A model generated the notes under the pieces. It was given only the letters and a program-made list of their open reading frames with translations, was not told the DNA's origin and searched no databases. From NCBI RefSeq assembly GCF_035083965.1, contig NC_089736.1, positions 9,303,501 to 9,367,500 of the forward strand: a DNA stretch of 64,000 bases, in the 5' to 3' direction. The translations under genes and the position numbers were made by a program. This stretch comes from Branchiostoma lanceolatum. Taxonomy: Eukaryota; Chordata; Leptocardii; Amphioxiformes; Branchiostomatidae. Positions 33,101 to 64,000 of this stretch are shown one piece after another (position 1 is the stretch's first letter; each line of letters opens with the position of its first letter).

Positions 33101-36100
33101 TGCAAAGTGTTGCAACTGTTAACATGTACTCATACACAGATAGATTACAATGATAAAAAGAAATGTTATTATGCATTACTCAAATACTCAGTCTCAACTT
33201 CTGTAGGCTGTGTATTCTTAGATATACAGTTGTGGCATATCTTGCCCTTTCCTCTAAATCTTTTTTGTTCTGAACTATTATAATTCTACTTGACCTTGAG
33301 GCCATATGTTTATGATATTTATGGTTCATGTATCTTTTTGTGTCTTCATTTTTTCCTCCTTAGCTAGGTCTGAATTTTAGAGAGTACAGTATAGATGTGA
33401 AATTCATCAGAAGTTGTTGTGCTGGTTTGCAGTTGGAAGCCAGCGGGTGAGCACCAGGTTTGTGGAAGAAGCCATCCGTGAACTGCTGTCTGCCCGGCGT
33501 GTGTTGAAGTTCTCTTATTGCTATGGCTACTACGTAGGAGATGCCAGGAAAAGGAGAATCTTTGAAGACATTCAGGTGAGAAGATTTTATCATAGAATTA
33601 AGATAGAAAGTAATAATTCTTTGATTTTTGTTGGAGCAAAGACTCTTTTACGATGCAACAAGGAAAAATGAAACTAGTGGGGAAACAAGCAGTATTTCTG
33701 TTCTATCCTTTATTTTTAGTCTTTTGACCTCAGTCAATGTACTGCAGTGCAATTGTTCCACACAAGTTAGTTTTCTTGTATGTACATTTTTACCAAAAAA
33801 GAATTATAGTTCATCAACAAGCATTACGCATTGAGTTTCACTTTAAAATATGACTTATAAACTTACATCATATTAGGTCTTCTAAGGCCTGTTCCATTGT
33901 TAAGAAATAGTCTGGAAAACTTTGAATGGAAAGTAGTCGATGCATTTAGTAACTGAAACCCCCAAAAAAAGAAAAATGGTAAAGGAAGTTTTCTGACTTT
34001 TTCTATGTGAAATCTAGACTGAACTGGAGGAGGCCACAGAAACACTGTCCCAGATGATCGCCAGGCCGTACCTCCGCACGCCGAGGTCAAAGATCATCCA
34101 GGGCGCCCAGCTGACTCAGAGGAAACGGCACGACTTCTTAGCCGCCGTAGAAAAGGGTCTCCTGCCCCCGGAGACGCCTCCATCTGAGAGGAGGAGGATG
34201 TGAGTTTCTTATTTCTATCAACAGTAAGAAAGAAATTTAGATGAACTGCAAGGTTTTATTTTGTTTAACAAGTTTGCTCAAGTGCAAAGCCAAGATGCTA
34301 TTTCTGGGCACTGAACTTAGTTGGTAGGAGAAATAGGTGACTACATTGTATACCTGATAACAAGAATATAGGTGACTATGTTAGGAGATTGTTGCTGTGA
34401 ATGTTGGTTTTGAAGGCTTGTGGTTTGTATTCGGGTGGGAAACACTTGTCAATGAAAGAGTTTCATGATTTTGCAGAAAGGAGCTGTTGTGAAATGGTTG
34501 TCTGTTACATAGCCACACAAATTGAATCTGTTGGGTCTCGGACTCTTGCAGGAAAATACTGCAGCGGGCAGGCGAATTAAAAATGATGATAAAAAAGAAA
34601 CATACATCTTGTGATGGACCCCAAGGCTTACTACAGGAGCCACAAACTCAACATAACAGGCTGGTTAAACATTTCAAACTATGGCTCTTCAACTTTTGAC
34701 TCATCTTCTTTTTTCCAGTCATACTCAGACCAAGGATGAAGCATGATACTTTTCCCTTAGCTAGTAAAGCAATAACTTTGAATAAGCAAAAACAGAAACA
34801 AACTAGAAAGACAATAACTTTCTTCAACTGTTGGGGCCAAAATTTGAGCATGTTGGGATGATTATAAAGTTCTAAACAGGAACTACAGCGTCTTTTCTGA
34901 AGATGTAGCTTGAGTGTTTATGATTGACTTGAGGTTGTCCACTACTTTTTGCCTCCTGGTGTTCCTCACATTGGTTCTTCATTCTTCCCTTTCTCAGTTT
35001 GATGGACTTGTTCAGGCCGAGGTTCTTCGAGGAGGAAGATGAAGAATCGCTGCAAGATGTAAGATTTCAAAGTCCTCCCAACAAACTGTAGTGTGGTAGA
35101 TCCACATATACTACTTTCCTTGCTCACACAAATAAATGTGTACTGTGTGCAGATGAATGTGTAGATAGCTAAAGAAAAATCTGTCTAATTGGTTTGATTC
35201 ATTCTTTAACAGTTAGGTCTATATTCTGTACATTAGGTCATGGAAAGAATGGATTGCGTAATCTTATTTTCTGTATATTCAAGGCACGCTCTTGAAAAAA
35301 CTTGTTGATGAATTACAACAGATGCTGTTAAATGTAAGATTATAATCACGATGAGAGCTTGGTACTTTTCCTTTATTGACTGTTGTTACATACTATGTTT
35401 CCTCCCTTTTCAGGAGGATGCTGCCCTAGCCCAAGCCATCCTGGCCTCCCTACGAGATGCCTTTCCCCAGGAGCCCCCCACCCCTCCCCAGGGGGACAGC
35501 AGTACCCAGAGCTCGGACGAGCCCAGCCCCAACCCTGCCACCAGGCTGGCCAGTACAGGAGCCAGTCCTACCCGAGGTACAACCTGTTCTCACTCTCAGT
35601 ATCCTCTCCTGCCAGGCTTGTAAATAGCAATCAATGACCCAGCCAATCATGTTGCTTCTTACTGTCAAGGGCCAATGTGATTGGCTGGTGACTCTCTGGC
35701 TGATGGCTACCTAGGCCTAACTGCACCAGAAGGACAGATTGCAGACCGGTGTGCCAGGGCAGGACCATTGCATAGTATTTACCAGAACCTGGCCTGGATG
35801 GATCTCAGCTTTCGCTTATACATTGTATTAAAGACTTATTCCTGTAGTAGCCATTAGGCCTTCTAATTGCCATAGGCTTCTTAATGCAATGATTTTGTAT
35901 AGCATACAGCAGAAGGCAAGTTATATGCTTTTAGTACTTTTCTTCAATATGAAATGAAAATAATTCCATATATTGTAGTTCCGCCAGTGGACCCGACACT
36001 GTGTCTGCGGATAGGCTGCGGCAGGCCTCGCGCGGTGCACCGGCAGTCTGGGAGACCTCACGACTTCTGCAGCCTGAGATGTCTGCAGATGGCCAGGAGG

Positions 36101-39100
36101 AGAGGCAGGAGGGGGAGGAACAGTATGTATCTGGGGTCATTTATTAATCAGGGATCGTTCAGTGATAAATAGGGGTGGTTCTTGACATCTAAGGCAGTGA
36201 CTTGAAAATTTAAGAATGTCGAAGACTTGGAAGAAAAAATATTTTCCAATTATATATCCTTCAAGGCATTGAAATAATTTGGGTCGGTAGGTAGTGAATT
36301 CTTGATTTCTTTTTCTTTAAAGATTTCGGCCAAAGTGATCCAAACAGTTTAACAATGTGAAAATGAAATGCATCAAGACACTGCTATTTTTAACATCATA
36401 CTGTAATTTAAGGTAATACCCTAAGCTTGTGCATTGTTTGCTACACATTTTACATCAACTGTTCGAAGATTTAATCTGTAAACAGCATAAAATACAGGAA
36501 GTCTGTTTTGAGCTTCATCACTCAAATCTTAGATCGAAAATTTTATGTCCCTTGCGGCTTGCCAGGCGTCAACCCCATAAAAGCTTAGCATTGACAGGTC
36601 TTTGCTAGGGTTGGTCAGTTATCCGGAAATACAACATTTTTTTCCCATAGACCTAATGTAATATACACTGGATAATACATCTCGGTGTATTTTTACCCTA
36701 TCAGGTCTGGATCTCCCCTGGCATCTTCTGGAGTTGGAGCCGCCCCCCACCCCACCACGGCGGACAGACTCCCTGCCCCCTCTACCCCCCACCCCCCCTC
36801 AGCTTCGCCAGCTGTGTCAAAGGCCAGAAGAGTCGGAAGACAGGTGGGTGTCAAAACTGGAGTTTGAACTTAAAATATTTCTTAATTTTGTCATAGATCC
36901 AGTACACTGAGTCTTTCCTGTATCCTTTTTAAACCTAAGTATATAAAACCTGTTGTGAGAAATTGCATGGAAGCATTCCTGTTCTGAAAGTCCCCAAAAA
37001 ACCTCTTTCCTATTTTCTTGTAACTTAGATGGTGGAAGCTGTGTATCATGTTCTGTTCGTTACATGATGTGATTATTAGTCATCCCAGTAGTTTTATATT
37101 AGTTTTTGGCTTGTCTCCCTGCCTGTATGTGGCTTCTGCGATTCCCAATATACACAATGTCAATGCAACATTACCGTACATGTATATCCTACTCATTGTG
37201 TCTGTGGGACTAGCAAAAGTAGAGGCAATGCAAAGCAGTATGGGTAAGGGGATGAAGTCTGCCATCTCTGATTGATGACATGTTTGGGTTTTACAGTGAC
37301 TACGAACACTTGACAGTGGGGAGAGGGGACGGAGGAAGCCAAGTAAATCCATTGACGTGCACCCCACAGAGGGACCTCCCTGCGGCGGAACAGGCACTGT
37401 TTCAGATCCCTACAGAGGACAGCACACTGGGGGCGGAGCCTGGGGTCACTGACCCTGATCTACACAGGGTGCTGGAGCTGTCCAGGCTGTCTGCACAGTT
37501 AGCTCCCACTGAGTCTGCTGGTAAATTTTTTTTTTTTACGATCTCGCTCAATGCAAGGCCGTAGGGGGCCTCTTCTAAGCATTGAACTAATTGAACTAAT
37601 GTAGCTAAGGAGAGAGATATGTTTGTTTTGAAGGTTTGTAGGTTATATTCGGGGGGAAAGCAGTGGGGAGGGAGTTCCATAGTTTTGCTGTTTGTGGAAA
37701 AAAGGTGTTACTGTAGAATGACTTTTGAGGCTGGTAGTTGTACAGTATAGTGGTGTGAGTCAGGGGAAAACCTGGCGGTACACTTAAACATTCTCTGTGG
37801 TGGGATGAGTAGTGAAATGTTACCTTAGTTTGTCTTTTTGCTATTGATAGATTAATGGTTTGTGACTAAATAAGAATAAAGGTGAAATGGGAACTGTGGA
37901 TAACAATGATAACAAGAATCATGGTTTGTATTCAATTAAGAGAAACGGTAGAATAGGAAGTCCAAAGAGGAGAAAATGTGGATCAAAATACAAAACATTC
38001 AGATAAGATATACCTTGTAGTTGCATGCATTATGTGACAGTTATCCTTTGTTCACAGGTGGACTACATCAAGTTTTTACCCTGCATTGATAAGTTCTTCC
38101 AAAAGACATAAAAATTTCCTTTCGGTAGGACTAGGAGTTTCAGGAAATGATATTTTAGAAAGGACCTCAATATACGTGTACAACTTTATTTTTTTGGTAG
38201 GTGCCTATAACAACTTCTTTTCTAATTGGAAATCTTTTCCCCTTCAGCAGGAGACCAGGGAGAGGATGAACTGATCCGTGCCATAGAGCTCTCACTCCAG
38301 CTTTCCACAACAAACTCTTCCACCGCTCGGCCCTTACTGCCACAGGTTCCCCTACCGGTCCAGTCCGACTCTGTCCCCTCCACAAATACAAACATGTCAA
38401 ACCACAGCAACAACAACAACTCCATTCCCTCCTCAGGGCCCGTCCTCGTGGCCCCAACACCTCAGCAAACTGTGCCGTCTACTGAGAAACATGTGCCCAA
38501 CATTCCAGAAGAAGTAGTAGACGGAGTGCAGAGTGAATCCACACTGGTGGAGGACGTACCCGAGGCAGGATGGGTGAGTGTGCCGCTCTCTGGAGACACC
38601 CTCGGGGCCACGGCCTCACCAGGAGCGGAGAAAAAGTCTTGTAAAGGCTCGGATTCACCCAGAAGGAAAAGCAGGAAAGGTGAACCTAAGGTAGTGCTGG
38701 TCAGTCCTGCTGAAGTTGAGCTGCAGAAGCAGCAATCAGCATCTACTAGTAAGATGAAGGTGGAGGAGGCAGAATGGCTGGAGGTTGGGGAGAGGACTGA
38801 GTTTCTTGAGGCCACCCTGCGAGCGTGGCTTACTGACGAGGGCTGGTTAGGTAGAAACACTCCCGGCAATCCTGCGGCCGGCCAGAACACGGCGCCCAAG
38901 GACGTCGCAGCAAAAGTAGATGGCATGTCACCAAAAACAGAAGCAAACGTCGCCGCCGAGGAAGGGCTCGAATTTCTGTGCTCTGTGCCTGACAACGGAA
39001 ATGCAAACACAGCCACGGGTGCGGGGGAGGAGCTGAGCGACTTCCCCACCCCCCCTGCTGAAGTCAAGTCGCTCATTTGGGAGCCTCCAAGCGACGAGCC

Positions 39101-40190
39101 GGAAACAGAGCCTGGTAGTCTCCTAGCCATGGACTCTCACACTTTGTACAACCTTGCCGAAATCGATTCCATTGTAATCAACAGTGTACAAAGGGCAGAA
39201 GCAGTTTCAGGAGACCCTGCAGGAGAAGAAACAACAGAGCTCATTGGCGCAGTAGGGTTAGGAGAAAGTAGTTTGAAATCAGTACAAAACAGCAACCCTT
39301 CTAGCACAAAGGAAGCTGTAAAGGAACTTGAGCTAAAGTTTGAAGATGACCCAACTACCCCGAAAGACTATCTAGAAACCAACCTTGACTCGCCGTTTGA
39401 GTTGACTGATGACCTTCAGGCATTGTGCGCAAAGCTGCCTTTGAGTAGGGAATTTCCCAGGATCCCTGCAGCAGACGAGATTTGGATTCCTCAAGAACGG
39501 ATCCCCGAACCTTTTGTGTTTGACACAGCTTTAACCCCGCAGGCAGTGCCATCATCAAACGCTAACAATACCGGGGCAATGAACATGGAGGTAGAATCAG
39601 AGGGGAGTCCAGGACTAGTAGGTGATAATAAGGACACAGTAGTGCCCAATATGTTTGCACATGTACCTGTACAGGGCCCCACTACTTCCCTTTCTGCGGC
39701 TATCACAGATGCACACCAGGCACTCTTCGGCAACACCATGGCATTTCCAGGAGGTCAGGAAAGTGTTCCGAGCCATCCTGTACTTCCAGCCTCGCGTCTT
39801 TCCGTTGGGCCGCCCTCCCAACATCCACAGATTACAAACACAAGGCATCCAGCGACGGGCCGCCACCAATCGGGAGGGAAATCCCCAACGTTTGGTCAGA
39901 AGGTGCCCGAGCCGCCGCCCCGCCTTACTAGGGAAAGAAGGCTGGCACTAGAGGCCGCCAGCAAGGCGCAGAGTATCTGGGAGAGAAGGGAAAAGGACGC
40001 ATCTGCATCGTCCGATACAGGCGACCAAAGGAGAGGCCATAGACGAAAATCAAAAAATAGAAAGAGAAGCAAAGAGGAGGGGAGAGGGAATGAGGGAAGG
40101 AGAAGGGCATCAGTGGAGGGAGCAAGAGGGGTTGGGGAGGGGTGGTATGATCCTTTAGATGATGATGATATACCTGCCACTTTGGTGTAG
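24134..40190 (+). CDS. ANKIB1: ANKIB1, ankyrin-repeat RBR E3 ubiquitin ligase (Ariadne class)
   Basis: 23 coding exons: 24134-24321, 24514-24622, 24945-25100, 25413-25538, 26050-26109, 26295-26412, 26657-26823, 27520-27608, 28044-28188, 29067-29221, 29760-29842, 30277-30425, 31300-31434, 32137-32223, 32882-32951, 33433-33575, 34018-34199, 34998-35058, 35414-35576, 35979-36122, 36705-36843, 37297-37520, 38248-40190. Phases agree throughout, giving 1,611 residues. The start [16 protein letters not shown] aligns with human MGNTTTKFRKALINGD. Ankyrin repeats span about 40-190. RING1 starts at CDIC (309), IBR at about 387-450, and RING2 at about 495-540 with the likely thioester Cys508 in EGCNHMKC. 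The Ariadne helices (HYYTRFKNH) follow, then UIM-like helices near 742, 940 and 971. Human ANKIB1 is about 1,089 residues; the extra length is mostly the disordered exon 23. RBR ligases take ubiquitin from E2 onto the RING2 cysteine, and Ariadne members act with neddylated cullins. Confidence 0.95.
24602..24790 (+). repeat. Tandem duplication of an ANKIB1 exon end with its 5' splice site
   Basis: The end of coding exon 2 with its donor (GTAATGACCCTGATGTACAG/GTAGGGAG, followed by CTCTCATCAG) recurs almost exactly at 24666-24712. It recurs again, more diverged, at 24731-24790. Copies two and three are intronic decoy donors. Only the first is joined to an open exon. Confidence 0.85.
25211..25366. 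mobile_element. Foldback MITE, family B copy 1, in ANKIB1 intron 3
   Basis: The left arm reads CAGGCTCCGCTGATC, then GGAAAAATGGTAGAAATTGG. The right arm is its reverse complement, ending GATCAGCGGAGCCTGGTAGAGG. The arms are about 55 bases and the loop is short. It shares terminal and arm sequence with the element at 55081-55311. No transposase is present. Confidence 0.8.
25815..25946 (-). mobile_element. tRNA-derived SINE fragment in ANKIB1 intron 4
   Basis: Read on the minus strand, the segment carries TAGTCCAGTGGTTGG, an A-box-like promoter, and 45-55 bases further on AGTTCAAATCCC, a B-box-like promoter. This is the RNA polymerase III architecture of a tRNA head. The head cannot fold as a functional tRNA, and an unrelated body follows, so a SINE is the better reading. 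Confidence 0.6.
26800..27415 (+). repeat. Seven-unit array made from the end of ANKIB1 coding exon 7 and its donor
   Basis: The exon end AGCTGACTCTGAAACACTG/GTTAGTT at about 26804-26830 recurs with few changes starting at about 26867, 27139, 27190, 27254, 27318 and 27368. Several copies also share following blocks such as GGGTCACTGTATA or AAGCATTCAATCAATAAACC. Each copy keeps a TTAGTT donor-like end. The array fills most of intron 7, with one unrelated insert at about 26915-27120. Confidence 0.85.
27634..27870 (-). mobile_element. tRNA-derived SINE, copy 1 (ANKIB1 intron 8)
   Basis: On the minus strand it begins GGGATGTAGCAGCCTCATAG and continues to CCTGGTTTAAATCC, a B-box-like motif. The body then runs to GTGCCACTAGGCATTACAAG. 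The same order of blocks is found at 31587-31811, and the tail alone at 44714-44815, so this is a dispersed family. Confidence 0.7.
28465..28562. repeat. Dispersed repeat, second copy of the 19405 family
   Basis: It shares several ordered blocks with 19405-19500, including GTGGCCACAA and the TCAGGTTTGAC end. It is intronic in ANKIB1 with no evident function. Confidence 0.45.
28904..28960 (+). repeat. Duplicated acceptor and start of ANKIB1 coding exon 10 (IBR)
   Basis: The acceptor and first 34 bases of exon 10 (29067: CAG/GCTTTTGTGGAGACC, on through AATCCCCACATC) occur also with the acceptor at 28915-28916. The two acceptors are exactly 150 bases apart, and the frame between them has no stop. 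Use of the upstream acceptor would therefore add 50 in-frame residues between RING1 and IBR. A donor-like AGAG/GTACTT at about 29025 could also make a separate cassette exon. Confidence 0.8.
31193..31250 (+). pseudogene. Decayed copy of the start of ANKIB1 coding exon 13 (RING2 end)
   Basis: CTGCAG/TGTAAGTATGGCTTCTGC, then TAGATG and GGCTGGGAGAA, parallels the true exon at 31300 (CTAG/TGTAAGTATGACTTCTGC, then TGGGTG and GACTGGGAGAA). The copy keeps an acceptor but has an in-frame TAG where the true exon encodes the RING2 tryptophan. Inclusion would truncate the ligase just after the catalytic cysteine. Confidence 0.8.
31587..31811 (-). mobile_element. tRNA-derived SINE, copy 2 (ANKIB1 intron 13)
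   Basis: On the minus strand it reads GGTAGCAGCCTAACAGTTGA near the start and then CCTGGTTCAAATCC, a close match to the pol III B box. A body follows with GTAAAATGGGGGTCC, a CCCTGTAAAAACGTACCC block and CCACTAGGCACTACAAGGG. It is collinear with the copy at 27634-27870. Confidence 0.75.
35979..36122 (+). other. ANKIB1: ANKIB1 exon encoding an extra Cys/His zinc-like motif
   Basis: This coding exon of 48 residues contains C-x4-C-G-x-P, then after about 15 residues HDFCSLRC, followed by an Arg-rich tail. The spacing resembles small Cys/His zinc-binding motifs of the type CxxxxCGxP...HDFCxxxC. I do not recall such a motif in vertebrate ANKIB1 between the Ariadne domain and the UIM region. The exon is framed by a TTGTAG acceptor and a GTATGT donor, and the flanking phases agree. 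Confidence 0.65.
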
Positions 40191-42835: not shown

Positions 42836-45800
42836 TCATACAGCAGTATTTGTTGCTGCGACACCTGGAATAACCTGCGGTTTTCTTCCCTCACGAAGGA
42901 AAGAGAAGAAGATCTTTTTCCTCAAAGTGGCCACAGGTGCCGGGCTCTGTTTAAACTGCCCTCCCCCTTTCCTTGCAATGGCCTTCCCTACTTCTTCATT
43001 GACCTTGATGAGGATGCTTAGAAGGTCGTGTCTGTTCCCCATGTTGTCTAACGTCTCCACTAGTTTGGTGACAAACCAGGAGCCCTGCGTCTTGCTGCGG
43101 TAGGAAACGTAACCGGGGATCGTCGAGTAACTCAGGAGGAAGTCGGCCTCGTTGGGGATGGTTTCCTGGAACGCTTCCAGACCATCCGAAGCGTCAGTCC
43201 TAATATCGCTAATGCCACGCTGCTCGCTTCGCCCCTGACAAGCCTGGATGAAGAACAGCTTTGGCTTCCCACTAAGGGATGGGCACTTGGTAGACTTGAT
43301 TTCTTCTGCCAGGTCCCGGATGCTGACAGGGACACTGTCGGATCCATACACCTGGCCCTGACTGCCGTGTGATAGGATACAGGCAACGAAGCAGTCATAG
43401 TTTCGGTGATCGGCGCGGCGGACTTCGGTGAAGAGGTTAATGAGTTGATCATGTGTGAGGTCTTCCTGTAGGGTGACCTCAAAACCAAGCTTGTCGAAGA
43501 TGTAGTTCAAATTATCTGGAAAAGAACACAATATACAGTCAAAAATTGTGCAAATTTTGACATCTTTTTGGTGGTCCCTTAAACATTAGTACAAGCATTA
43601 AGGATCTGGTCTATAGTGACCACCTGTATACATAGACAATATTCCCATTAGTCACACTCATAGATCCTTTTCATTTATCAAGTAATTAGATGTGCCAAAA
43701 AATATGGTTCAGAATTATCAGTAGAATTAGCATGCAATTTTGTACCTCTGTCCACGTTTGTTCCTTCCCGATTCTCGAGCCTTTGTTTACTGTTTGGGTT
43801 TCGATGGTCGTGGAAGAACTGTTTGTTGTTGACAATGACAGCCAGGCCGCGAGGATTATGTTCCATTCCGTAACACGGCATCTCTTCTCGCTGCCGTGCC
43901 CTCTCCTGCTCGAGCTTCAGTTCCAGCTCTCGCTGAATGATAGCCTGGAGATCAGCCGGCGCGGGGCCCAGGCCAGCAGGTACCTCCTGTGCTGGGTCTG
44001 GTGGTTGCTGGTCTGCTACTCTGGCTGTCTGCCGGGCTTGGCTGTCTGATACTCTACCAGCCTGCTGCATCAGCTCTGTCTGGATCATCTGTTGGTACCC
44101 TGAAGACAAATAAACCAAACTTTTATATGTTTTTGAAATAGACATCAATATCAAGATATTCCTTAGAATACAGGGTTTACCAATATACACTTACTGACTT
44201 AGTTGCAACTTTTTTCTGTCAAGGCTTTCAATACGACAGACCACAACTTACCAATCAACAATCTTATCACCTATGGATTTAATGATTCCTCTAACTGCAA
44301 TAACATTCTCAAATAGTCATAACATGATGTACCACAAGGATCCATTCTAGGCCCCATTTTACGAACACATACCTTGTTGTGGAGGCCCCATCATGTTTTG
44401 TGTCATGGCCACCAGGTTAGCTTCCTGGTAGGCTGGATTCTGCTGTTGTGTCTGAGGGTCTAGTGGTCTGTGTTGTGGAGTAGAGTCACCTTTCATCGGT
44501 GAAGGAGGGAAACCTTCATCAGGGGAGCCCTTCCCACCTCCGCTTCTTGATGGTGTGCTGGCTGTTGCACAAATATATATGTCAAAATAGTAGCCAAGAA
44601 AATCCCAAGGATTGTGTAATTATGCTTCTAATTATCATTACCGAGCATTAAGCATTAAACTTATTTTCTTATCCAAAACATGATGGATAAATTCTCAAAA
44701 CTATGTTGTTTATCAAGGGAAAGGCTGCTCCCTGTAAAAACATACCCTTCTTCTGAAACAGAAAGGAAACTAATGCTGCCCTATGTGGCACTACAAGGGT
44801 TTGACTGAATGAACTTGTTTTATCAATAACTATTTACATGTACTAGTTAGAAATACAGCGTGAATTACAGTTACTGTAACTACATACTATCATATTATGT
44901 TCCAGCTATCATAGCGAGTGTGTGTACTATGTATCAGTACTTTCAGTTTGCTTAGATTTTTTCAAAACAGCAATAATCTTTATGTCATTGACAGAACTGT
45001 TATGTGTCGTTGGTGAATGAATTGGATGAAATGATTTGGTCATCGATGAAAGAAATGTTTACCTTCATAGTTCTGTACAATGTTCTTCAGGTCTGGCCGC
45101 TCGTGTGTTTGCAGTAATTCATGCAGCACCTGGACATTATCACTGCTCAGGTGCATCCCTTGTTCCAGAGCAATGGCCAAGGAGAGAAAACTGTCCACCT
45201 GAAGTTTAATAAAGCAATTGATGAGATTCAAAAGATCAAATTCTCATCATGTTATTCTTATTGCAAAGTTTTGAAAAGGAGATAACATAAATGTTTGTAT
45301 ATCAACATTGCCAGTAAAAGCACTGTTTTAACTAGCATGATGTCTCACAACTATGTACTAGTAATGTTATCTAAGTGAAAAATCCTCTTGTTGAAGTGAA
45401 ACATGAAGCTTTTTCATTTAGCTGACATTGACATTGCAATGTGGCTTCACCACAGATAAGATGTTTTTTGCAAGCAGTCACCAGGAATTTCCCAACACTC
45501 TAACAATGCGTGGTGGTTAATCCTCCAACTTTGATTGAAAATACATATTACAAAATTCATGCAGTTGTATTTACCGTTTCCAGCTTGTTTCTTGATATGT
45601 AGGCTGCAGCCATGAACTTCATGTCATCAAAGTCACGATTGGTCAGTTCTTCAGACACTTCTAACAGCATCACCCTGTACACAGATCATGATCATGTTGT
45701 CAGCAATGATTACTCCTTTTTTCAAGATTTCCCTGTTTAACCTCCTTGGTTTCTTTGAACCTTTGCTTATGCATGAAAACTCAAAATCTGCCTGCTGGCC

Positions 45801-46392
45801 ACTCACGGACAGAACACGTACATTGAACATATATGTGGAAAAACGTATGAGCTTGCTTGAGAAAGATCACCCTTCTTTTTATACAAATGTACCGGTCTGA
45901 TTCACCTTTAAAAGCATCATTATATAGTATGTACAGGCTATTATCTAGCAGGGGGTCCAGGCGTCTTTTGGACGCCCTAGACAAAGACAAATCAGGATAG
46001 GACCAATAGTTTTCATAACTTTTTTTCTCTTCTCATGCTTACCTGAATGGATTCAACAGTGCCCTGCCACGGCCTATCTCTCTGGACACCTGTTCAGGGC
46101 GCCAGGATAGCTTCCTCAACAAGTCTGCCCTCTGGATCCTGTACAGGAGCTCCGTCAAGAACATCAGGTTGTTCTGCCCGAGCAGGCCTTTGTTCTCCAG
46201 GTGTCTGAACACGTCCAGGGATCCTTTGGCATTCTCCAGCTTAGCGGCAGGAATAAAGTCTCTGCAGAGGAACTTTAAGGAGGCAATGTCCCCCGATGTA
46301 AGGTCATCGTCAATGTCCTTAAGAGCCCTTCTGAAGGTGAAGTTCGGGTCGACTGCATCGGTTGCCAAACCGGTGCTTGGAAGTCCGGCCAT
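42836..46392 (-). CDS. Caspase-8-like initiator caspase with two death-effector domains
   Basis: Exons in gene order are 46043-46392 (coding part), 45575-45674, 45063-45198, 44373-44561, 43746-44099 and 42836-43515. All phases agree, giving 602 residues. DED1 spans about 14-100 and contains the charged-triad-like RADLL motif. A DED2-like region spans about 117-194. A Gln/Pro-rich linker of about 130 residues follows, with a charged coiled segment before the p20 start (GMEHNPRGLAVIVNN). The catalytic His426 is in SHGSQG and Cys469 in QACQG; QACQG is the pentapeptide of caspase-8. A p20/p10 linker with Asp residues (DIRTDASDG) offers cleavage sites, and the small subunit has GSWFVTKLVETL. Death-receptor or Imd-type adaptors would recruit it through DED contacts to start apoptosis or NF-kappaB signalling, by family analogy. 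It could represent the pro-orthologue of CASP8, CASP10 and CFLAR. Confidence 0.92.
44714..44815 (+). mobile_element. Truncated SINE tail, copy 3
   Basis: It carries CTCCCTGTAAAAACATACCC, then CTTCTTCTGAAACAGAAAGGA and GTGGCACTACAAGGGTTTGA. This corresponds to the 3' body of the SINE copies at 27634 and 31587 without the tRNA-like head. It lies in caspase intron 3. 5'-truncation is typical of retrotransposed copies. Confidence 0.6.
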
Positions 46393-46860
46393 TTTAGATT
46401 CTTTTTTGTTCTTATGCAAAATTGAATCTGAAAATGATAAAACGCAGTGGTGTTAACTTTCATGCATACACAGCAGTAAAGATTATGTCAGAGACATGCG
46501 TTCTAAATTTTTAAGACTGGTTTTATATCAAATGATATTCATTTCTCTAATCTTCATGATGGACATCTGTCTTACATTAGAAGGAAACTTAGATGTAAAC
46601 ATCAGCTGACATCTTTGTTCAAGGATATGAGATTTGACATAAACATACGTTACCAATCACTCTTAAACCCCTTAAGGTGTTAAGATTTAAAAAAAAACAA
46701 GGTTAAGCATGTCCAAATTTGATGATGACTGTTGCATATTTGAGTTTACATTTAACAGCTGTTGGTTCTTAACTTAAGATTTTGATGGACCTCATAGAAA
46801 CAACAGCAAAACAGCAAATCAATGTGTAAAATTCGTTGACTTGGGCTAAGATTAGCTTAC

Positions 46861-46950
46861 CTTTCATGTTCCCGAGGAAGTGGGCTACCTTTCCGGATAT
46901 TTTATATGATGATAATTTTTTCCCGGTGGCAACTTAGAAAAAACATGCAC
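46861..46950 (-). promoter_or_regulatory. Possible alternative caspase 5' exon with in-frame ATG
   Basis: On the minus strand GGGAACATGAAAG/GTAAGC ends at 46861. Spliced to the acceptor before 46427, it gives ATG AAA GAT TCA and stays in frame through MKDSILHKNKKESK into the annotated MAGLPS start. This would add 14 residues to the DED1 N-terminus. The 5' boundary is not visible. A separate untranslated exon ending at 47049 (GATGTG/GTAAGT) is the other candidate. Confidence 0.45.
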
Positions 46951-47048
46951 TAAAAGTAAACTAAGTACAGCATCTGCAGATGAACTTCATGCATGAACCT
47001 GTCTGCCGAATGTGAAACAAGGAACTAAACCAAGGAGAGTTTACTTAC

Positions 47049-47240
47049 CACATCATCCTGGATGTTTGTAAAGCCTCTATTTTAGAGTGGAAAAGTCCCG
47101 AAGTGCGCAATCCACAGCAACCGAAACCAGGGGGGATTCCCCTTTTTCTGACTCACTTCCGGGTTCAGCTCTAATGGGTCGAAGGTCACCAAGCAAAGGC
47201 CAAAGGTCTTAAACTTTTATTACATTTGTCCATGAAATAA
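47049..47240. promoter_or_regulatory. Shared bidirectional promoter of the caspase and NDUFB3, with kappaB-like and ETS sites
   Basis: The caspase untranslated first exon appears to end at 47049 (donor GTAAGT, minus strand). The NDUFB3 start codon is at 47473. Between them lie GGGGATTCCCC at 47132-47142, a perfect 11-base kappaB-type palindrome, and CACTTCCGGG at 47154-47163, an ETS-type site, with TGACTCA-like sequence just before it. No TATA box is evident. ETS sites are common in mitochondrial-gene promoters. Functional use of the kappaB motif is inference. Confidence 0.6.
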
Positions 47241-47472
47241 AGATTTGTGCGACTAATATTTACAAAAAGGTGAGAGATAAACATCTGTGGTATATATTTC
47301 TAACTTGTACATTTTTGTGTGAAAAATTATGTCAATGTCGTACCCAGATTGGGAACGAGAGTGTGTCAAGGTACCGCCATCTTGGTTTGGAAGGTCGTGC
47401 GAAACACCTTGGAGAAAAAATAACATTTTTGCACTGTTGTAGCCTGAAAAGGTTGCTGTCAGACCTGCCAAC

Positions 47473-48498
47473 ATGGGAGGAGACGGTCATGGTCCTCCTA
47501 AGGAGCTCAAGATTCCAGACTGGCGGATCTACCAGATTAAAGGAACGCCGCTAGAAGACGTGCAGAGAAAGTTACACGCGAAAGGACTACACGACCCTTG
47601 GCTCAGGTTCACATACAAATTTTTGCGTTTATACTATAGTATATGTTTATATATATTATATATACATCATATACGTCTACAGTATCGTTATGCCTGTGTT
47701 TTCCTGTATCTGACAGTTTCCTGTGTATGGCTTTTCTACCATTTAGTTTACTCCTCAATGCTATCTACACTACAGTGCAAGTCTGTCTTCCATATATAGG
47801 AGGGTAGATGTAGTTCCAGGTAGATTTACCTGAGTCTTTCCGCTTTTGAACCTAACTGATTTTGAGAATTTGGGGACGACTTTTTCGTTCTGCAAAATTT
47901 TTTAGATTAGCGTGTGGTAGGTTGTTCTGAAATGTATATTAAACTTTAAAGCCATCATTTGATGATGGTTATGTTATGATGAATAGGAGGCTATAAGTTT
48001 GAATTGTCATCTGAGGTTTAAGAGATGACATTCTTCTTTATGAAGCCTCAAGGAAGAGTATAGTTCGAAAAATTAAAATTATTTGAAAAGAAAAAATTCT
48101 CAACTTATGCTATGATGGTCATAAAAGTCATGACCTTATGTGACTCCAGGGATGAAGAGGATTAGAAAGTAAGTACATGTGTGCTATAGTTTGTTTGGCT
48201 GTTGGTTGTTTGTTCATTTGTTTGTTGATTAGTTGGTTGTTTAGATATATAGATTTCAGAGACAACTTAATTGATAACAAACAAGGATTAACCACCACGA
48301 TAAACCGCCTTAATACTTTATACTAACACATGTTTATCATCTTTGTGTAGGAATGAAGCGTGGAGGTTCACCCATCTTCCAAGAATCACCTTCCCCATGA
48401 TTGCGTTCCGCGGCTTCAAGTACGGGTTCGCAGCCTTCGTGGTGGCGCTGGCAGTGGAGAAGGCTTTCTTCAGCAGTGACGACCACGGCCACCATTAA
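47473..48498 (+). CDS. NDUFB3: NDUFB3, complex I B12 accessory subunit
   Basis: Two exons, 47473-47606 and 48351-48498, join in phase 2 to give 93 residues; human NDUFB3 has 98. The sequence reads PDWRIYQIKGTPLEDVQRKL, then AKGLHDPWLRNEAW, then FRGFKYGFAAFVVALAVE and the terminal DDHGHH. These match the human blocks [30 protein letters not shown] and FKGFKWGFAAFVVAV. The single hydrophobic helix near residues 68-84 anchors it in the inner mitochondrial membrane in the distal arm of complex I. The intron falls between DPWLR and NEAW. The gene is head to head with the caspase and probably shares its promoter. Confidence 0.97.
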
Positions 48499-51639: not shown

Positions 51640-54600
51640 CTATGAAGTTGGTGTTAAGTTGACAGTCCCTCCTTTCTGACATGCACTCACCTGCAAAAAA
51701 TTGATATTGGGTTATTTTCAAGTCATAACCACATGCCACAGTGTGCCCGTGAAGCTGTAATTAGGCCAAATGGTGTTTATGCTGTGACCAATTTAGATTC
51801 AAATGACCAGTTATGTGCTGCAATAAACAAGACCTAACAGGGTACTGCCTTAAAACCAACTAATCTAACAGCCTAGCTAATGAGCCATAACTATTGTGTA
51901 TTGCATATACATGTATCTAACTTCATAACAAGTTGCCTACAGTCTAGCATAATGATCATGTGTTCACTATTGCCCTTATCAAACTCGTTCTGCCAATTAA
52001 TTTTCATCGGAGACTGTTATCAAACAGTATTGTAGATAGTACTACATACCAAGCCATATGATTGTCTTTGGTTGTTGGTACAGCATTGCTTGAGGCATTT
52101 CCCTTAAAAAGAAAGACAAAAGCTTGCTTGGGTTATGTTTACAAAGTGAATACAAGTTTAAGCCTACACCAGCACAGTTTATTATGCCTGCATGGTGGTT
52201 TCTTATCCAAATTTCAATTGCATAGTTGAACATAGTTGAAGTTAACAAAAATTGCATCAAACATACTTTTTCGTTAAAGGGCATAAGACACCAATGACAT
52301 CAACATAAAGAATTTCCTGAAATTACATAAAACATAATACTACTGTTTAATAACAGAGAAATTTGCACAAAATATTCACACTTCGGATGTTATTGAACAT
52401 CGAACCATCAAAACTTCATACCTCCAGCTTTTGATTCTTCCCACCAGGTAATTACATTAATCAGTGACTTGCCCAGTCATGACGTCACAATGAACATGGC
52501 AGCCGATTTGGAACTTTGCACTGTGGCTCGGAAAGAACGTTATTTTTACAAGCAAACAAAATACTACAGGAGATATTGTTGTGTCCTTTAATTGAATGTT
52601 ATCACCATAATTAAGCACTGTTTGCTCATCAAATAATGTTTTTCGCAAGCTGTGGTGTAAGGTTCCGAACTGGCTGCCGTGTTCATTGTGATGTCATCAC
52701 TGATTAATGTAATCACCTGGTGAGAAGATCAGATAAAAATAAAGAGCTGGATCCATGGAAGTATGGTTTCTGATGGTTCGATGTTAAATAATATCAGAAG
52801 GGTGTGTATTTGTTTTAAACGTTTATATTCCTTGAATGATGCTACTCCTATTTCAGATAATAAAATGTTTTATTTTGGTGTCTTATGCCCTGTAAATGCT
52901 GCAAATACACAAAGTGTACCTTTCCTATCACTTTAATATTACAAAATGACAAGTCTCAGTACTATAATGTTAAAGGCTACTTTTTTTATTATATTTAAAC
53001 CGGATAGTGAGTGAGTGACAGTGGATTGCAGTTACAGTGTTCCATTAAACATACAATTATCTTGTGTACAACTGACATAGAATGTACTTACATATCTGAC
53101 ATTTGTTCTGAAGAAAAATTCCCAGGCCAAGAGCCACCAGAAAGGCCATCACAATACCTGCAACATAAAGTCTTAATGATTGGATATGCATTCCAAAAGC
53201 TATCTGCCACCAAGGGGCAAATAATCGAACACCTAAATTTGGTGTGGGTGACCCACATACCAAACACATGTATCGAAAAATATCTGTTCACCGCTTCTTG
53301 GGTTAGGCTGCTGTGGTAGGTTTTCAACTGGCTTGTTTCTATTACAGTGCTTAGGTTACTATTGGAAGAGAGAATACACTAATCACTTACACTTAAAATA
53401 TTTTACAAAAAACAGCTGAGCCCTAAGGAAAGAAGGAAGTTAACACAGAAAGCAGTTACCAACCTTTAAAGATTTTGTTTGCATCTAGAGCAGTAACAAG
53501 CTCAATGGCTATATTTATATGACTAATGTTGCCCAAGACTGATACATTATTAAATTGCACAGGTTCTTCTGGTAATTCTACCTGCACCTAAACCTGTGCT
53601 GGTCAATGTCACAAGACCATGGGTCTAGGGTAATGGCCAACTACAACCAGTAGTGCCCCAAAATGCCTTACAAAATATGCATCTTGCATGAAAAACAACC
53701 TACCAGTTATATAGTTACCATTGCTGCTACTGTTCACTTGCTCTGAAACACAAGAATAACAATAATAGTAAGTCACAAAGACAATAAAAATTTTTACAAA
53801 ATGACAAGCAAGCTTGTATACTACCTAATAGCACATATATATAAATTCATATTCTGCAGTTCAGACTCATTCAAAATATAGATAGGGGTTACACTTGTCT
53901 TCACTCTCAGCCACAGGTCAAAGATATACAATTACCATCTGAAACATCTGATCATGACATGATAGAGAATTTATCCAGTTGCTTGATTTATTTTATATCA
54001 TGTAATGTTGTACCTGGATGTCTAACCTTCATCAACGTATTCATCAAATTATTTGAATGATGATTTAATGAAAATAATGGAGCTTGAATCATTTAAAAGA
54101 CTAGGCCATATTTTTAGGACTTACTTTCTAGGAGGTTGAAGACGTAGTATTTTTCTTCGAAATACAGACGCTGTCGCTGGTCCGCCCTACAGATGACATC
54201 AGTAACACCTAACTTCTCCACGTCATCTAGATGCACAGTGGATGCCGTACTGTTATAACTCAGGATGGATCCATTCTTGTATTTCAGAGCCCAGGAGATT
54301 TCAGGAACAGGGTTCCCTTCTGCCTTGCATGTGAAGGTGTTGCCAGTTCTGTTGTGACTGATGTAGACTTCAACTGTGAACAAAATTGTTTTATCATGGT
54401 CACATAAGGTAGCATATGCAGCATTCCTAACATTCACTGGTGATAAAAAGACAACCTCTTTTCCCACTGCAGGCTAGCCTGAGTACCATCCTCTGTGGTG
54501 ACCGCTGGCTCCAAAAGAAACGCTTGCTAACATGTTTTTTTTAGCCAGCGGTCACTACGGAGGATGATGCGATTTTTTTTAGCCAGCGGTCACTACGGAG

Positions 54601-57600
54601 GATGGTACTCAGGCTAAATGCAAGCCCACTTGAAGGGAAAGCTTCACCTTACATTGGTATACAAAACTTATATATATCAGTCTTAACCAATACAGTATCA
54701 AAATTAGACAAAGAGATCTGTATCAAAGGTTGGCATTGATAGACCACTTTACAGTTCCCTTTGCATGCTGGGAAAAACGGAGAACTCTGGGTAACATAGG
54801 GGGCAAGCAAAATCATTTAGTAATTCATTACCATGATAACATAAACTAGTCTGGACACGGTACACATAATGTCACGATGGTAATGTATGTGTTGCTTACA
54901 CACATACCCCACCCATGATTTTGTTATCTTTAGAAGGTTTACTCATGAGTGACTGTATTTGTGATCTTAGCAAACAAAATGTTGAATCCAATGTTTGAAT
55001 TACTTATTAGAATTAGACCAAGTTATGCCGGAACGCTTGCAACTTGGCTTGCTGAGATATATTGGATACCCCTAAACTTATAGCCTCTACCAGGCTCCAA
55101 AGGCAGCTGGAAAGAGTAGAAATTGGCCAAATAAACAGGAAAACATGAAAGAGGAGTTAGTTTGCTAAAGCCAGTAAAGGGGTGCAGTTTGCCACTCTGG
55201 GATGGCATATTGGACCCTCTCTCCGTAGCCAACTTCCTTAGCAATACTATTCACTCTATTTGGCCAATTTCTACTATTTTTCCAGCCATCCGCGGAGCCT
55301 GGTAGAGGCTACTAAACTTACACCAGCAGTCCATTGTAAGGTGTGCTTCCCCCATTTCCCTGGTATTATTTGCTGTGACTGTGAATGTTTTGCTACATGG
55401 TAGCTTGAGTTCACTGGTCGATATGCTGCACCCATTCTGCACCCAGCCAGTTTCTATTAACTCCTGAGGAAACACCTGCAGAGTAAGATAAAATTACAAT
55501 AGTAACAGTTATGATGATGGTGATAAACAATAACTGTCACAGAGTGACTTTAACGCTAAAGACATGTTAGAACTCAAGAGATTTTACAGCTTTATATGTA
55601 CACAAAATACAATTCTGTGTTACTGATAGCCAACATTTTTGTTCTGAGAACAGAGTGTACTGATACCACTACATAGAGTTGTGTAAAGCTCTTACAATGA
55701 ATCTGGAAGTGGAAGGGACCTCAGGATTGGCGTCAATGCTGCAGTTGACTTCTGCTGGACGACCAACCACCAATTGTGCTGTAACATTGCAGTCCAATCT
55801 TGGAGTATCTAGATTTGGAAAGCAATAATAGAAAAAATGCTAATCATTCTCTCGAAAACATGTTTGTATCATATGCATTCTTTTAACTGATTTTGGCCAA
55901 CATTAACGCCAGACAAATGCTACTTTCTTTTTTTACAGATATTAGTATGGAAGTGCTACAGATTTTTTACTGTACAAACCTATACATTGCCACCACAATC
56001 TTTGGGTTAAAATGTCTCAGGTTTACTATATACAAGTTGGCTCTTACAAAACAGAAACAAAGAAATAATAAGGGGGACACTTACATTGGACATCCAAAGG
56101 CACCCTCGGGGACGTCTTCGTTTGGTCTCCATCAGTCACATTGCAGTAGATTTCTTTCCCGTTGTCAATTCTGGTAGCTGTATATGCTATCCAGAACGTT
56201 ATGCGGTTTCCAACAATTGTTGGACGGTTCTCAGAGTTAATGACATTGGTACCATTGTACCACATGGCACTGATCAAATCTGGCTCTTTCGTGTCCAAAC
56301 TACAAGTCCAGTTGACTTTTTCTCCCTCTTCAATAGGGCCTTTATTCTGCAGACTGACAGTTGGAGTTCCCAGCTTATCTGCAGGACAAAGACATGAATG
56401 CAGAAACATTACCAATAAAACAGCGCAAAGTTGAATAGTCACAGTGTAATCATGCCATCAAAATGACAATATATAGTCATTGGTCTTTGTCATGGAGCTA
56501 CTGACAATTTTTGTCATTTTATGGAAATATTGCAAGCAAAGTATGATCAATATTGAAATATTTGGCATATTCATAATGCAAATGTACATGTAAATTAATC
56601 TAGAACGTTACTTGGAACCAACCAACCAACACAGGTGTGAACACAACATCTGAAACCATCAGAATATCTGGAAAGACTATTTTCAGGCTACATGTTGTAT
56701 ATATATATATATATATAGTTACATTTTACAAGACAGTACAAGGTGTTAGTAGTAAAGTTAGGGAAAAAGACTACAAATATCAACAAAGAAAATAGGAAAA
56801 TAAGGTGGTAAATGTAGATTGAAACAGATAGGAATTATTTATTGTTAGTAATGTAACAACATGTAACTGTGAGTAGCACAGGATTTGACATCTAGGGATT
56901 TTGCATCTCTGCAATGTGCGTTTTATTGTTATTGTTATTGCTACAGCTGGGGTAACTGAAACTGGTATTTAGCCTATTGCCTACGTGCTCAGGCCAGAAA
57001 CTGGCCCATTGCTAAATATACATGTACCACAAAGTCAAGTTCTCACCCTTATTACACCAGTCCGTCATAATCTAAGACCGTGGCCCTTAGAAAATCATTC
57101 TGTAACCAGCCACTTGGGCCTGACCTTTCACAGCAAGACAGCACATAGTCAATCTGTAGTGTAAGAATCTGCTCTGAACTGGGGGTAAACAGTTAACTCA
57201 TTGATTTCCTCAGAATCCATGATCCACTCTCCAAATCATAGTTTCATGGATGGCATGAAGTTGCAGAAAGCCTTCACATCTTGACTCAGGTATACTGTTT
57301 ACCTCCAGCTCAGAGCCATGATCATAGGATCAAAGACAATAAGGTTAAAGTCAATTTGATAGTTGATACATTACAGTCAAAGAATCAACCAATCAGAGAA
57401 AGAAAGAAACAGAGAGGATAAGCTTGTATACAGGAGAAAGGGAAGACAACTAGGATGATACATAGATATGTACATGTATGTGTGGAACTGTGGAAAAGTT
57501 TAATGTATACAAATACTAGTACTGTAATACCAAGAAAGGGGAGCTACTAAAATAAGGATTTTCTTGACTGACATACATTTGTACATGACAATAATGACCT

Positions 57601-60600
57601 TGTCATCCAAGTGAAGTAATACTGTCTTGTTTCGTACCTGTTATTTTGATCTTGTTTTCAGTAAGAGCATCGTGCATCTTGAGATCTTCATACTTTATTT
57701 TACACACATACATCTCAGAGCCACCCCGAAATCCTGTCAGGCACAATTTCTGTTGTTCTTCTTCAAAGATGTAGTTTCTGTAGCTGTCAGGAATAGACTG
57801 TGGTCCAGCAACGGCATCACACTCAAAAAACTGTGTACGGAAAAAATTTAAGCACAAGCTGTAACTTCATCATAATCACAACATGGACTGTTTCAATATC
57901 ATGATCAAACAATGATACTACTACTACTGTGCAACTTTTATATTAGTATAAGCTCATGCCATTTTTGATCTCTTGGGTTTGTCACTTTGATTTTCTTCTG
58001 ATGAGAAAAGATGTACATTCAGTGAATATACAAGTGTTACATTTTGATAAAAACACTTGAAGAAAGTCTTTGTCTTTCTGGATATTTAAGACTTTCCTTA
58101 CATTCATCCTAATACTTACCTTTGTATTGCTGTTTTTCTGGATTAAATCAAATCCTTTCACAACCTCCGTTGTATCATACGAGCAAGAGAAACAGCAAGG
58201 GTCACCACGGTAGCATGTTGTCTGGACGGTCTTGATGATCTGGCCACCGGTACCGAGTACTGAAAAGGAAAAAAAAATGTAAAATGTCTACTGGTATAAA
58301 TATATGTACATACATGTATTGTATTCTTATTCCTATATTCATGTTTCAGATGATAATACATATGTGTTAGTGTCTTTTGGTGTTATATTTGGAAATTTGT
58401 AATTTGCAGAAAATACTACATTGCAGGTAAATATCAATTTACAAACTTGTGATGTCGGTGAATATTCCCTGAAAAAATAGGCATTTGCTAAAAAAAAGAG
58501 AGACGGAAAGTGTCAACTTCAGTTTATGTCACTTTGGATAAATGTATTGACTTGGAACTCAGAATCCATAGATAGAAGAGCACCCTCATTACATTCCTAG
58601 AAAAAAAAAATCTAGATTCCTGTAGCCTTTGATATCCAGATTGGAACATTCTCTAGAAGACAATTAGTAGTACATGTACCAGTGGCCGAAGTGTCATTTT
58701 CTGCCATCCTTTTGTCTCTTGGAAGCTCACTCGGAGGTTGTTCCAGGCAGATAGGTTTCCCACCTTCTGCACTCTGAAGCAAGCACACAGCTGCCAAAAA
58801 CAGAGCTGCAGAGGGGGAACATCAAAAACAAACATTTTACATTTATTTAAGTCAAGTGAAGTCAAACTTCACTCAAAGCCTTTATTATCTCCATGAAAAA
58901 AGGCTTTTTCATGGATATACTGTTTTGCTTGCGTTTGGTATTTGTGTGTATGTTTGTGTCACCGGATGCTTAAAGTCACCATAACTGTAGAACCTGTACA
59001 TGGATCGTAATGATTTTTGGTATGTGGGTGGGTGTTAAGTGGAGGAAGGTCAAGGTCGATTTTGGGCCCCCTGGCATTTGTGATTGGAACTGCAATGGCG
59101 TATTTTTAAAAATCTTCAATGTAGAAGAACTGAAGAGAGGATCGACAGATCGTCATGTTATTTGGTACACAGGTAGGTTAGACCAAGATGTACACACTTA
59201 AGTGCAAACTATGCAAATGAGACCTAATTTGCATAAGTAAGGAGGTAAATCGTTTGCATGTGTGTCGCTGGATGCTTAAAGTCAGCATAACTGTAGAACG
59301 TGTAGATGGATTGTAATGATATTTGGTATGTGGGTATGCGCTGGGAGGAGAATGGTCAAGGTCGATTTTGGGCCCCCTAGTTTGTGTCCCTGGAACTACA
59401 ATGGCCTATTTGTAAAAATGTTCTAAAGGGGTATAACTGAAGAAAGGAACAACAGATTTCCATGTTATTTGGTACGCAGGTAGGTTGGACAGAGATGTAC
59501 ACACTGAAGTGCAAATCATGCAAAGTTAGTGTGTTTGCGTGCGTGTGCACGTGTGTGTATGTTTGTGTCACCGTGTGTGTATGTATGTGTCACCGGATGC
59601 TTAAAATCAGCATAACTATAGAACGTGTGGATGAATTGTAATGATATTTGGTATGTGGGTAGGTGTCGGGAGGAGAAAGGTCAAGGTCGATTTTGGGCCC
59701 CCTGGTATGTGTCACTGGAACTCTAATGGCGTATTTGTCAAAATCTTCAAAGGAGAATAACTGAAGAAAGGAGCGACAGATTTTCATGTTATTTACTATG
59801 CAGGTAGCCTAAGCAGAGATGTATACAATGAACTGCAAATTATGCAAATTGGACTTAATTTGCATAAGTAATGAGGAAAATCTATATCTGCAGTGTTGTC
59901 ATGTGGCACGCCATCTGTCAGTAGCTATTTATAGAAAAGTAGGTCAGACTCTTCCCCTTGCAGTGTGGGTCATACCATTGAGCGATATAGAATGGGGGGA
60001 ACTGGTTTAATAGAAAAACAACGTTTCATGGAGATTTTGGGTCCTAAGACTCTTGTTTTACTTTGAAATACTTGTTCGGCCACATGGCCGCTTTTCAACA
60101 AGGTCGAAGTTAAATGGAGGGGTAGGAGTTACGGATATAGAGTACAAAAATTTTACAAAAATGATATCATCACAATCATAGATAATACATTAAAATAAGT
60201 AATTAAATAAATAAATACATGGATACATCATTAAGTATATGTATATATATGACATATATACATGTAAATATATATACATACATACACATACATACATACA
60301 TACATACATACATACATACATACATACATACATGATATTACATATACATTATATGTTCATATCAAGCAAAAACTCCCTTCGTTAGTCGCCACGGCTACTC
60401 CCCCCGTAATTTTTAATAGGGGCGGCGGAGGTTAACCAGGGTAACCGATTTAATCAGGGTATATATAAAACCGGTAGCCACGGCAACTGTTGCAGTATGA
60501 TTACACTTAATGACACTAACATGTCGTGGCAACATGACGGGGTAAATCTACATCCGGAAGTCCCGCGAAAGAGCTCGATTTCAAAAAGTGTCGGCTGCCC

Positions 60601-63698: not shown

Positions 63699-64000
63699 GT
63701 GAGTGTAATCTTATATATCATATGGCTGAAAGAGCGACCAATTAAGTTTGTGGGAAGAAGGTATGAGATTCTAATATACCACAGTACATGTGAATATTTC
63801 TTGAGTCAGTCCTTTGAAAATCCCCAGTTGTTTTACAAGAAAAAATATGTTTTTACCTGACGTAATGGTTATAGAGGGCACTTTGACACTTCGAGTTAAA
63901 CTTTTAAACAGAATTTGGTTACTAGTAATAAAAAGTGAGGCAATAGATTAAAGCATGCTATTTAATCCTCAAATTCAATGAATATTGCATTACATACTTT
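63699..64000 (+). other. Intron of the right-edge Ig gene, no feature seen
   Basis: AT-rich sequence after the donor at 63699. No further exon is recognisable before the window ends. Confidence 0.5.

What the first reader, a model, noticed from the sequence alone, without database searches (positions are those of the whole stretch)
42836..48498. Ancient linkage of NDUFB3 with a DED caspase
A caspase-8-like gene and NDUFB3 are immediate head-to-head neighbours here. In human 2q33 the order is NDUFB3-CFLAR-CASP10-CASP8. An amphioxus-like genome with the same neighbours would indicate linkage older than vertebrates, and would make this single caspase a candidate pro-orthologue of CFLAR, CASP10 and CASP8. 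That the vertebrate cluster arose by tandem duplication next to NDUFB3 is my inference.
Basis: partly seen in the sequence, partly recalled or inferred. Interest (0 to 1): 0.8.

Follow-up and report, generated by a model that had tools for sequence, protein, structure and literature searches.

The report
Lancelet-like caspase-8 gene beside NDUFB3
A cell-death gene of the caspase-8 type sits next to a mitochondrial gene in a lancelet-like genome, as its relatives do in humans, which hints that the two have been neighbours since before vertebrates arose, although the genes face each other differently and no other genome could be checked here.

Summary
At 46392-42836 (-) six exons encode a 602-aa initiator caspase (two DEDs, SHG and QACQG motifs). 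NDUFB3 lies at 47473-48498 (+). They are head to head, 1,080 bp between start codons. The best solved relative is human caspase-8. The tree puts the gene beside CASP8+CASP10 with moderate support (80-88% bootstrap); CFLAR cannot be placed, and no alternative grouping is rejected.

Human order FAM126B-NDUFB3-CFLAR was seen in a paper. Corrections: the human pair is, from recall, tail-to-head, so an inversion is needed; amphioxus has 15 caspase-8/10-type genes, not one, though this one resembles the characterised bbtCaspase-8; and tandem duplication from one ancestral casp8 gene is already published. No animal genome was available, so retention versus coincidence stays untested. A further lead is ANKIB1, tail to tail with the caspase; from recall its human home, 7q21, looks like a duplicate of the 2q33 region.

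The parts
46043..46392 (-). caspase coding exon 1: start codon, DED1
45575..45674 (-). caspase coding exon 2: first part of DED2 (RVMLLEVSEEL)
45063..45198 (-). caspase coding exon 3: rest of DED2
44373..44561 (-). caspase coding exon 4: linker
   Evidence: splice sites and open frame
43746..44099 (-). caspase coding exon 5: linker and start of the p20 subunit (CYGMEHNPRG)
42836..43515 (-). caspase coding exon 6: rest of p20 with SHG and QACQG, p10, stop codon
46393..47472 (.). 1,080 bp between the two start codons; inferred to hold a divergent promoter
   Evidence: YY1-type CAAGATGGCGG at 47374-47384 (only exact copy in the window) and ETS-type CCGGAAGT at 47155-47162 (2 copies in the window, 0.78 expected, 19 of 100 shuffles reach 2: not above chance); no transcription data
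47473..47606 (+). NDUFB3 coding exon 1
48351..48498 (+). NDUFB3 coding exon 2, stop codon
24134..40190 (+). ANKIB1 (ankyrin repeats + IBR), tail to tail with the caspase; blocks to 34194 matched, 3' part (35312-40190) inferred
   Evidence: 14 tblastn blocks in order against human ANKIB1 typed from recall; Pfam Ank (below its cut-off) and IBR in 4 of 10 pieces scanned; 3' part without Pfam match

Best explanation
A lancelet-like genome carries an active caspase-8-type initiator caspase directly beside NDUFB3. The linkage most likely goes back to the chordate ancestor, before the vertebrate caspase was copied in tandem into CFLAR, CASP10, CASP18 and CASP8 near NDUFB3. The protein most likely works as its characterised amphioxus counterpart is reported to do: the tandem DEDs bring it to FADD, neighbouring molecules dimerise, and the enzyme cleaves itself in the p20/p10 linker (candidate site IRTD/A) to start apoptosis. 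The two genes probably share a divergent promoter region. Shown here: gene structures, domains, catalytic motifs, adjacency. Inferred: antiquity of the linkage, shared promoter, activity, dimerisation and cleavage site. From the literature on bbtCaspase-8: FADD1 co-localisation of the prodomain, and cell killing.
For: Gene models and domains. Full-length human caspase-8 is the best solved match, 277 bits over DEDs and caspase domain; caspase-8 caspase-domain chains score 177-181 bits, the best other caspase 159.5. Tree: window gene with CASP8 and CASP10, outside the pair; 80/91 and 75/83 with CFLAR in, 88/87 and 90/85 without, 85/90 and 84/83 under LG+G4. Catalytic His and Cys both present; linker IPNEADFLL against IPDEADFLL in CASP8. 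Human chromosome 2: FAM126B, NDUFB3, CFLAR in that order by SNP position (PMC4485866, passages). [quoted passage not shown] Chance of NDUFB3 having one of 15 such caspases as an immediate neighbour among 28,192 loci: 0.0011 (with counts). Lancelet bbtCaspase-8: 606 aa with prodomain 1-193, against 602 aa and DED exons ending at about residue 195 here; its published forward primer matches at 18 of 19 bases.
Against: Orientation differs from human (recalled), so at least one inversion is needed. Amphioxus gene order is largely scrambled relative to vertebrates (PMC7269912, passages). With 15 caspases and 40 acceptable human neighbour genes the chance figure rises to 0.042, and the comparison was chosen after the fact. 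In teleosts casp8, casp10 and cflar lie on different chromosomes, and one paper dates two distinct CASP8/10 copies only to tetrapods (PMC12119088, passages). AU tests reject none of seven groupings tried, window+CASP9 and window+executioners included (p 0.15-0.48). Caspase-domain identity to CASP9 (41.6%) equals that to CASP8 (41.2%). DED2 scores higher with CFLAR DED2 and the FADD DED than with CASP8 DED2, and the DED tree is unresolved. The reverse primer of bbtCaspase-8 matches only 9 of 18 bases at the expected place. Full-length bbtCaspase-8 did not co-localise with bbtFADD1, only its prodomain did. No FAM126 (hyccin) gene was found in the window with a recalled query.
Confidence: 0.55

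Rival explanations
1. Coincidence: one of the many lancelet DED caspases landed beside NDUFB3 independently of the vertebrate arrangement.
For: 15 caspase-8/10-type genes give many chances; look-elsewhere probability up to 0.042; opposite relative orientation (human side recalled); gene order largely scrambled between amphioxus and vertebrates.
Against: The plain probability is 0.0011; the caspase involved has canonical caspase-8 architecture close to bbtCaspase-8, not an odd domain make-up.
Confidence: 0.25
2. Shared chromosome, not shared neighbourhood: both genes belonged to one ancestral chordate linkage group, and reshuffling within that chromosome brought them together again.
For: Linkage groups are conserved while order within them is scrambled (PMC7269912, passages). 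Orientation differs. ANKIB1 next door belongs, from recall, to 7q21, which looks like a 2R duplicate of the 2q33 region, as a shared linkage group would give.
Against: On a chromosome of about 1,500 genes (28,192 loci over 19 chromosomes), immediate adjacency by reshuffling is still roughly a 1 in 700 event for one caspase (inference).
Confidence: 0.17
3. The genome is not a lancelet's but another animal's, so the comparison with bbtCaspase-8 and the amphioxus gene counts does not apply. (Not exclusive of the other explanations.)
For: No species was identified; one bbtCaspase-8 primer matches poorly.
Against: The other primer matches 18 of 19; protein length and prodomain boundary nearly equal.
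Confidence: 0.1

Closest known systems
bbtCaspase-8 of Branchiostoma belcheri tsingtauense (GenBank JF717867, PMC3196919)
   Same: two DEDs + caspase domain, QACQG, 606 aa against 602 aa, prodomain boundary 193 against about 195, one qPCR primer 18 of 19
human CASP8 / CASP10
   Same: architecture, both catalytic residues, QACQG, EADFLL before p10; 41% and 44% identity in the aligned caspase domain
   Different: linker between DED2 and caspase domain 139 residues against 46 in CASP8
human CFLAR (c-FLIP)
   Same: tandem DEDs and caspase-like domain; neighbour of NDUFB3
   Different: CFLAR has lost both catalytic residues; the window gene keeps them; 28% identity
human 2q33.1 cluster NDUFB3-CFLAR-CASP10-CASP8
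   Same: NDUFB3 next to a DED caspase-family gene
   Different: one caspase instead of three; head-to-head instead of tail-to-head (human orientation recalled); other neighbours differ (ANKIB1, IgSF genes)

Membership tests
caspase-8/10 initiator caspases | two tandem N-terminal DEDs | tested here: met
   Pfam DED, two stretches; alignment to both DEDs of 8ybx_A
caspase-8/10 initiator caspases | catalytic His (SHG) and Cys in QACQG | tested here: met
caspase-8/10 initiator caspases | groups with CASP8/CASP10 in a caspase-domain tree | tested here: inconclusive
   Groups with them at 80-88% bootstrap in three trees, never at the starred level; AU tests reject no alternative
caspase-8/10 initiator caspases | recruited by FADD, induces apoptosis, cleaves IETD | not testable with these tools
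   Reported for bbtCaspase-8, with co-localisation for the prodomain only
CFLAR / c-FLIP | pseudo-caspase without catalytic His and Cys | tested here: not met
   both residues present
NDUFB3 (complex I B12 subunit) | NDUF_B12 domain and best matches to NDUFB3 chains | tested here: met
pro-orthologue of CFLAR, CASP10 and CASP8 | branches outside all three but inside their clade, against invertebrate DED caspases | tested here: inconclusive
   Outside CASP8+CASP10 (75-90%); CFLAR too divergent to place; no invertebrate DED caspases available
pro-orthologue of CFLAR, CASP10 and CASP8 | single-copy in its genome | not testable with these tools
   Literature gives 15 caspase-8/10-type genes in amphioxus; one in this window
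conserved NDUFB3-caspase microsynteny | adjacency in at least one further non-vertebrate genome | not testable with these tools
   no genome held for this window; no animal genome collection on hand
conserved NDUFB3-caspase microsynteny | same relative orientation as in human | tested here: inconclusive
   window head-to-head; human tail-to-head is recalled, so it appears not to be met

The most novel reading that the evidence does not exclude
ANKIB1, the caspase-8 ancestor and NDUFB3 formed one block before the vertebrate genome duplications. After them, one copy kept NDUFB3 and the caspase (human 2q33) and another kept ANKIB1 (human 7q21). The caspase and NDUFB3 shared a divergent promoter, kept in lancelets and untangled in vertebrates, where the freed caspase was then copied in tandem. 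A cell-death initiator and a respiratory-chain subunit would thus have been co-regulated neighbours in the chordate ancestor.
Probability: 0.25. Interest if true: 0.6.

Novelty: new member of a known kind. Interest (0 to 1): 0.42.

Why it matters
If the linkage is ancestral, it gives an independent, non-tree criterion for deciding which of the 15 lancelet caspase-8/10-type genes is the true counterpart of the vertebrate cluster, which the sequences tried here resolve poorly. It also fixes the starting arrangement from which the c-FLIP/caspase-10/caspase-8 module grew. None of the papers listed by the ten library searches (four of these lists were cut short) was seen to report this linkage, but Sakata 2007 and one of the two Sakamaki 2015 papers were asked for and are not held, and the other 2015 paper was not sought.

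Tried and rejected
Searching the window's own genome for caspases: no genome is held. DED tree: unresolved, 0 of 7 inner branches starred. AU tests on seven groupings: 0 of 7 rejected. Search for a FAM126/hyccin gene with a recalled HYCC1 fragment: no hit at E 1e-3. Rfam at gathering thresholds and tRNA scan: none. Literature: NDUFB3+CFLAR+CASP10+synteny, 0 papers; at least 4 of FZD7, FZD1, CDK15, CDK14, paralogon, 0 papers; at least 3 of ANKIB1, NDUFB3, KRIT1, FZD7, FZD1, ohnolog, 4 papers, none relevant by title and abstract start. The lists (20 of 257; 20 of 301; 15 of 567; 10 of 12) were cut, so absence from them is not shown. Structure prediction and the scans of genome, viral and metagenome contigs were not run: the first would not bear on linkage or orthology, the others do not aim at animal genomes. 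CFLAR membership rejected because both catalytic residues are present.
Full report
What was checked. The finding says that a caspase-8-like gene and NDUFB3 lie head to head at 42836-48498. Both genes were rebuilt from the sequence. The caspase has six coding exons on the minus strand, GT/AG at all five inferred junctions and one open frame of 602 residues. It carries two death effector domains and a caspase domain (Pfam), the catalytic motifs SHG and QACQG, and a caspase-8-type p20/p10 boundary, IPNEADFLL. NDUFB3 has two coding exons and 93 residues; 20 of 20 solved-structure rows are complex I subunits, 18 named NDUFB3/B12 and 2 named NB2M. The stated coordinates are the two stop codons, and 1,080 bp separate the start codons.

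What the caspase is. Full-length human caspase-8 is the best solved match (277 bits); on the caspase domain alone caspase-8 chains score 177-181 bits and the best other caspase 159.5 (best 60 of 256 rows shown; a query with human CASP10 showed no CASP10 chain among the best 60 of 119 rows). In a tree of caspase domains with nine human members the gene falls beside CASP8+CASP10 and outside that pair: support 80/91 and 75/83 with CFLAR included, 88/87 and 90/85 without it, 85/90 and 84/83 under a simpler model. This is what a pro-orthologue of CASP8 and CASP10 would give. It is not strong: no branch that groups the gene with CASP8 and CASP10 reaches the starred level (the one starred branch, only sets CASP1 and CASP2 apart); none of seven groupings tried is rejected by the AU test, p 0.15-0.48; identity to CASP9 (41.6%) equals that to CASP8 (41.2%); and CFLAR has so long a branch that its place is unsure. 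DED1 is nearest to CASP8 DED1 (43 of 87 identical); DED2 scores best with CFLAR DED2 and the FADD DED, ahead of CASP8 DED2, and the DED tree is unresolved. The human sequences were typed from recall; CFLAR, CASP9 and CASP6 were confirmed against PDB chains, CASP10 was not.

Which animal. No genome is held for the window. The gene resembles bbtCaspase-8 of the lancelet Branchiostoma belcheri tsingtauense (PMC3196919; outline, methods, discussion and the first of two parts of the results read). That protein has 606 residues with a prodomain of 1-193; here 602 and about 195. Its forward primer matches 18 of 19 bases; elsewhere in the coding sequence the best match has 8 mismatches, elsewhere in the window 5. 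The reverse primer, at the position that would give the published 208-bp product, matches only 9 of 18, which 46 of 1791 positions reach. A lancelet is likely; the same species or strict orthology is not shown.

How it most likely works. By the literature on bbtCaspase-8, the DED prodomain co-localises with FADD1 (the full-length protein did not), the protein kills HeLa cells, and z-IETD-fmk inhibits this. The window protein has the parts needed: tandem DEDs for recruitment, both catalytic residues, and an aspartate-bearing p20/p10 linker (IRTD-A, in the place of VETD-S of CASP8) for self-cleavage. Activity and the cleavage site are inferred. NDUFB3 is an accessory subunit of complex I. Between the two genes lie a YY1-type site, the only exact copy in 64 kb, and an ETS-type site, which is not above chance (2 copies in the window, 0.78 expected, 19 of 100 shuffles reach 2). 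[quoted passage not shown] A shared divergent promoter is therefore plausible, but there are no transcription data.

Is the linkage old? [quoted passage not shown] With 28,192 lancelet loci and 15 caspase-8/10-type genes, the chance that NDUFB3 has one as an immediate neighbour is 0.0011. Against: if any of 40 human neighbour genes had been accepted beside any of 15 caspases, the figure is 0.042. Lancelet gene order is largely scrambled against vertebrates (PMC7269912, passages). In teleosts casp8, casp10 and cflar are on different chromosomes, and one paper dates two distinct CASP8/10 copies only to tetrapods (PMC12119088, passages). The relative orientation differs: human NDUFB3 and CFLAR run in the same direction, and human NDUFB3 is head to head with FAM126B (both recalled). 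An inversion would be needed. No second non-vertebrate genome could be examined, and that is the deciding test.

What is already known. That CASP8, CASP10, CASP18 and CFLAR arose by tandem duplication from one ancestral casp8 gene, with the single ascidian gene as a model of the ancestor, is published (Sakata 2007, as described in PMC2779465 and PMC1903365, passages; also PMC7586951, passages). The ten library searches listed no paper seen to join NDUFB3 to this history; four lists were cut, and Sakata 2007 and one Sakamaki 2015 paper are not held. NDUFB3 had no occurrence in the four caspase-evolution papers searched for it: PMC1903365, PMC2779465, PMC7586951 and PMC5965869.

A lead outside the finding. 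The gene on the other side of the caspase, tail to tail, is ANKIB1 (14 blocks in order against a recalled human sequence; ankyrin or IBR matches in 4 of 10 pieces; its 3' part is inferred). From recall, human ANKIB1 lies at 7q21.2 near CDK14 and FZD1, and CDK15 and FZD7 lie at 2q33 near CASP8. These pairs look like 2R duplicates, so 7q21 and 2q33 may descend from one pre-duplication block holding ANKIB1, the caspase and NDUFB3. No paper found here confirms it. A SETD4-like exon at the window's left edge, whose human gene is from recall on 21q22, does not fit the block.

Verdict. Real adjacency, a well-identified caspase-8-type gene, and a plausible but untested ancient linkage. The claim of a single pro-orthologue is too strong. 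Interest is moderate.

Noticed in passing
24134-40190 (+): ANKIB1 gene (ankyrin repeats, IBR), tail to tail with the caspase; from recall its human orthologue is at 7q21.2, a region that looks like a 2R duplicate of 2q33.
   Followed up: partly
526-798 (-): Exon similar to the C-terminus of SETD4 (36% over 92 aa to a recalled human sequence); from recall human SETD4 is on 21q22, so it does not fit the 2q33/7q21 block.
   Followed up: partly
10969-14514 (+): Uninterrupted 1182-codon frame with several C2H2 zinc fingers, identity not determined.
   Followed up: no
54117-63742 (both strands): Scattered immunoglobulin-domain frames (V-set, C2-set, I-set-like; 4 of 5 frames scanned from 54117 on), probably of at least two genes.
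   Followed up: no
47374-47384 (-) and 47155-47162 (-): YY1-type and ETS-type motifs between the caspase and NDUFB3; with one mismatch allowed the window has 5 YY1-type sites in all against 0.59 expected, the other four away from this pair.
   Followed up: partly
43746-44561 (-): The linker between DED2 and the caspase domain is 139 residues, about three times that of human CASP8 (46), yet keeps a GSPDE motif just after DED2 as in CASP8.
   Followed up: no
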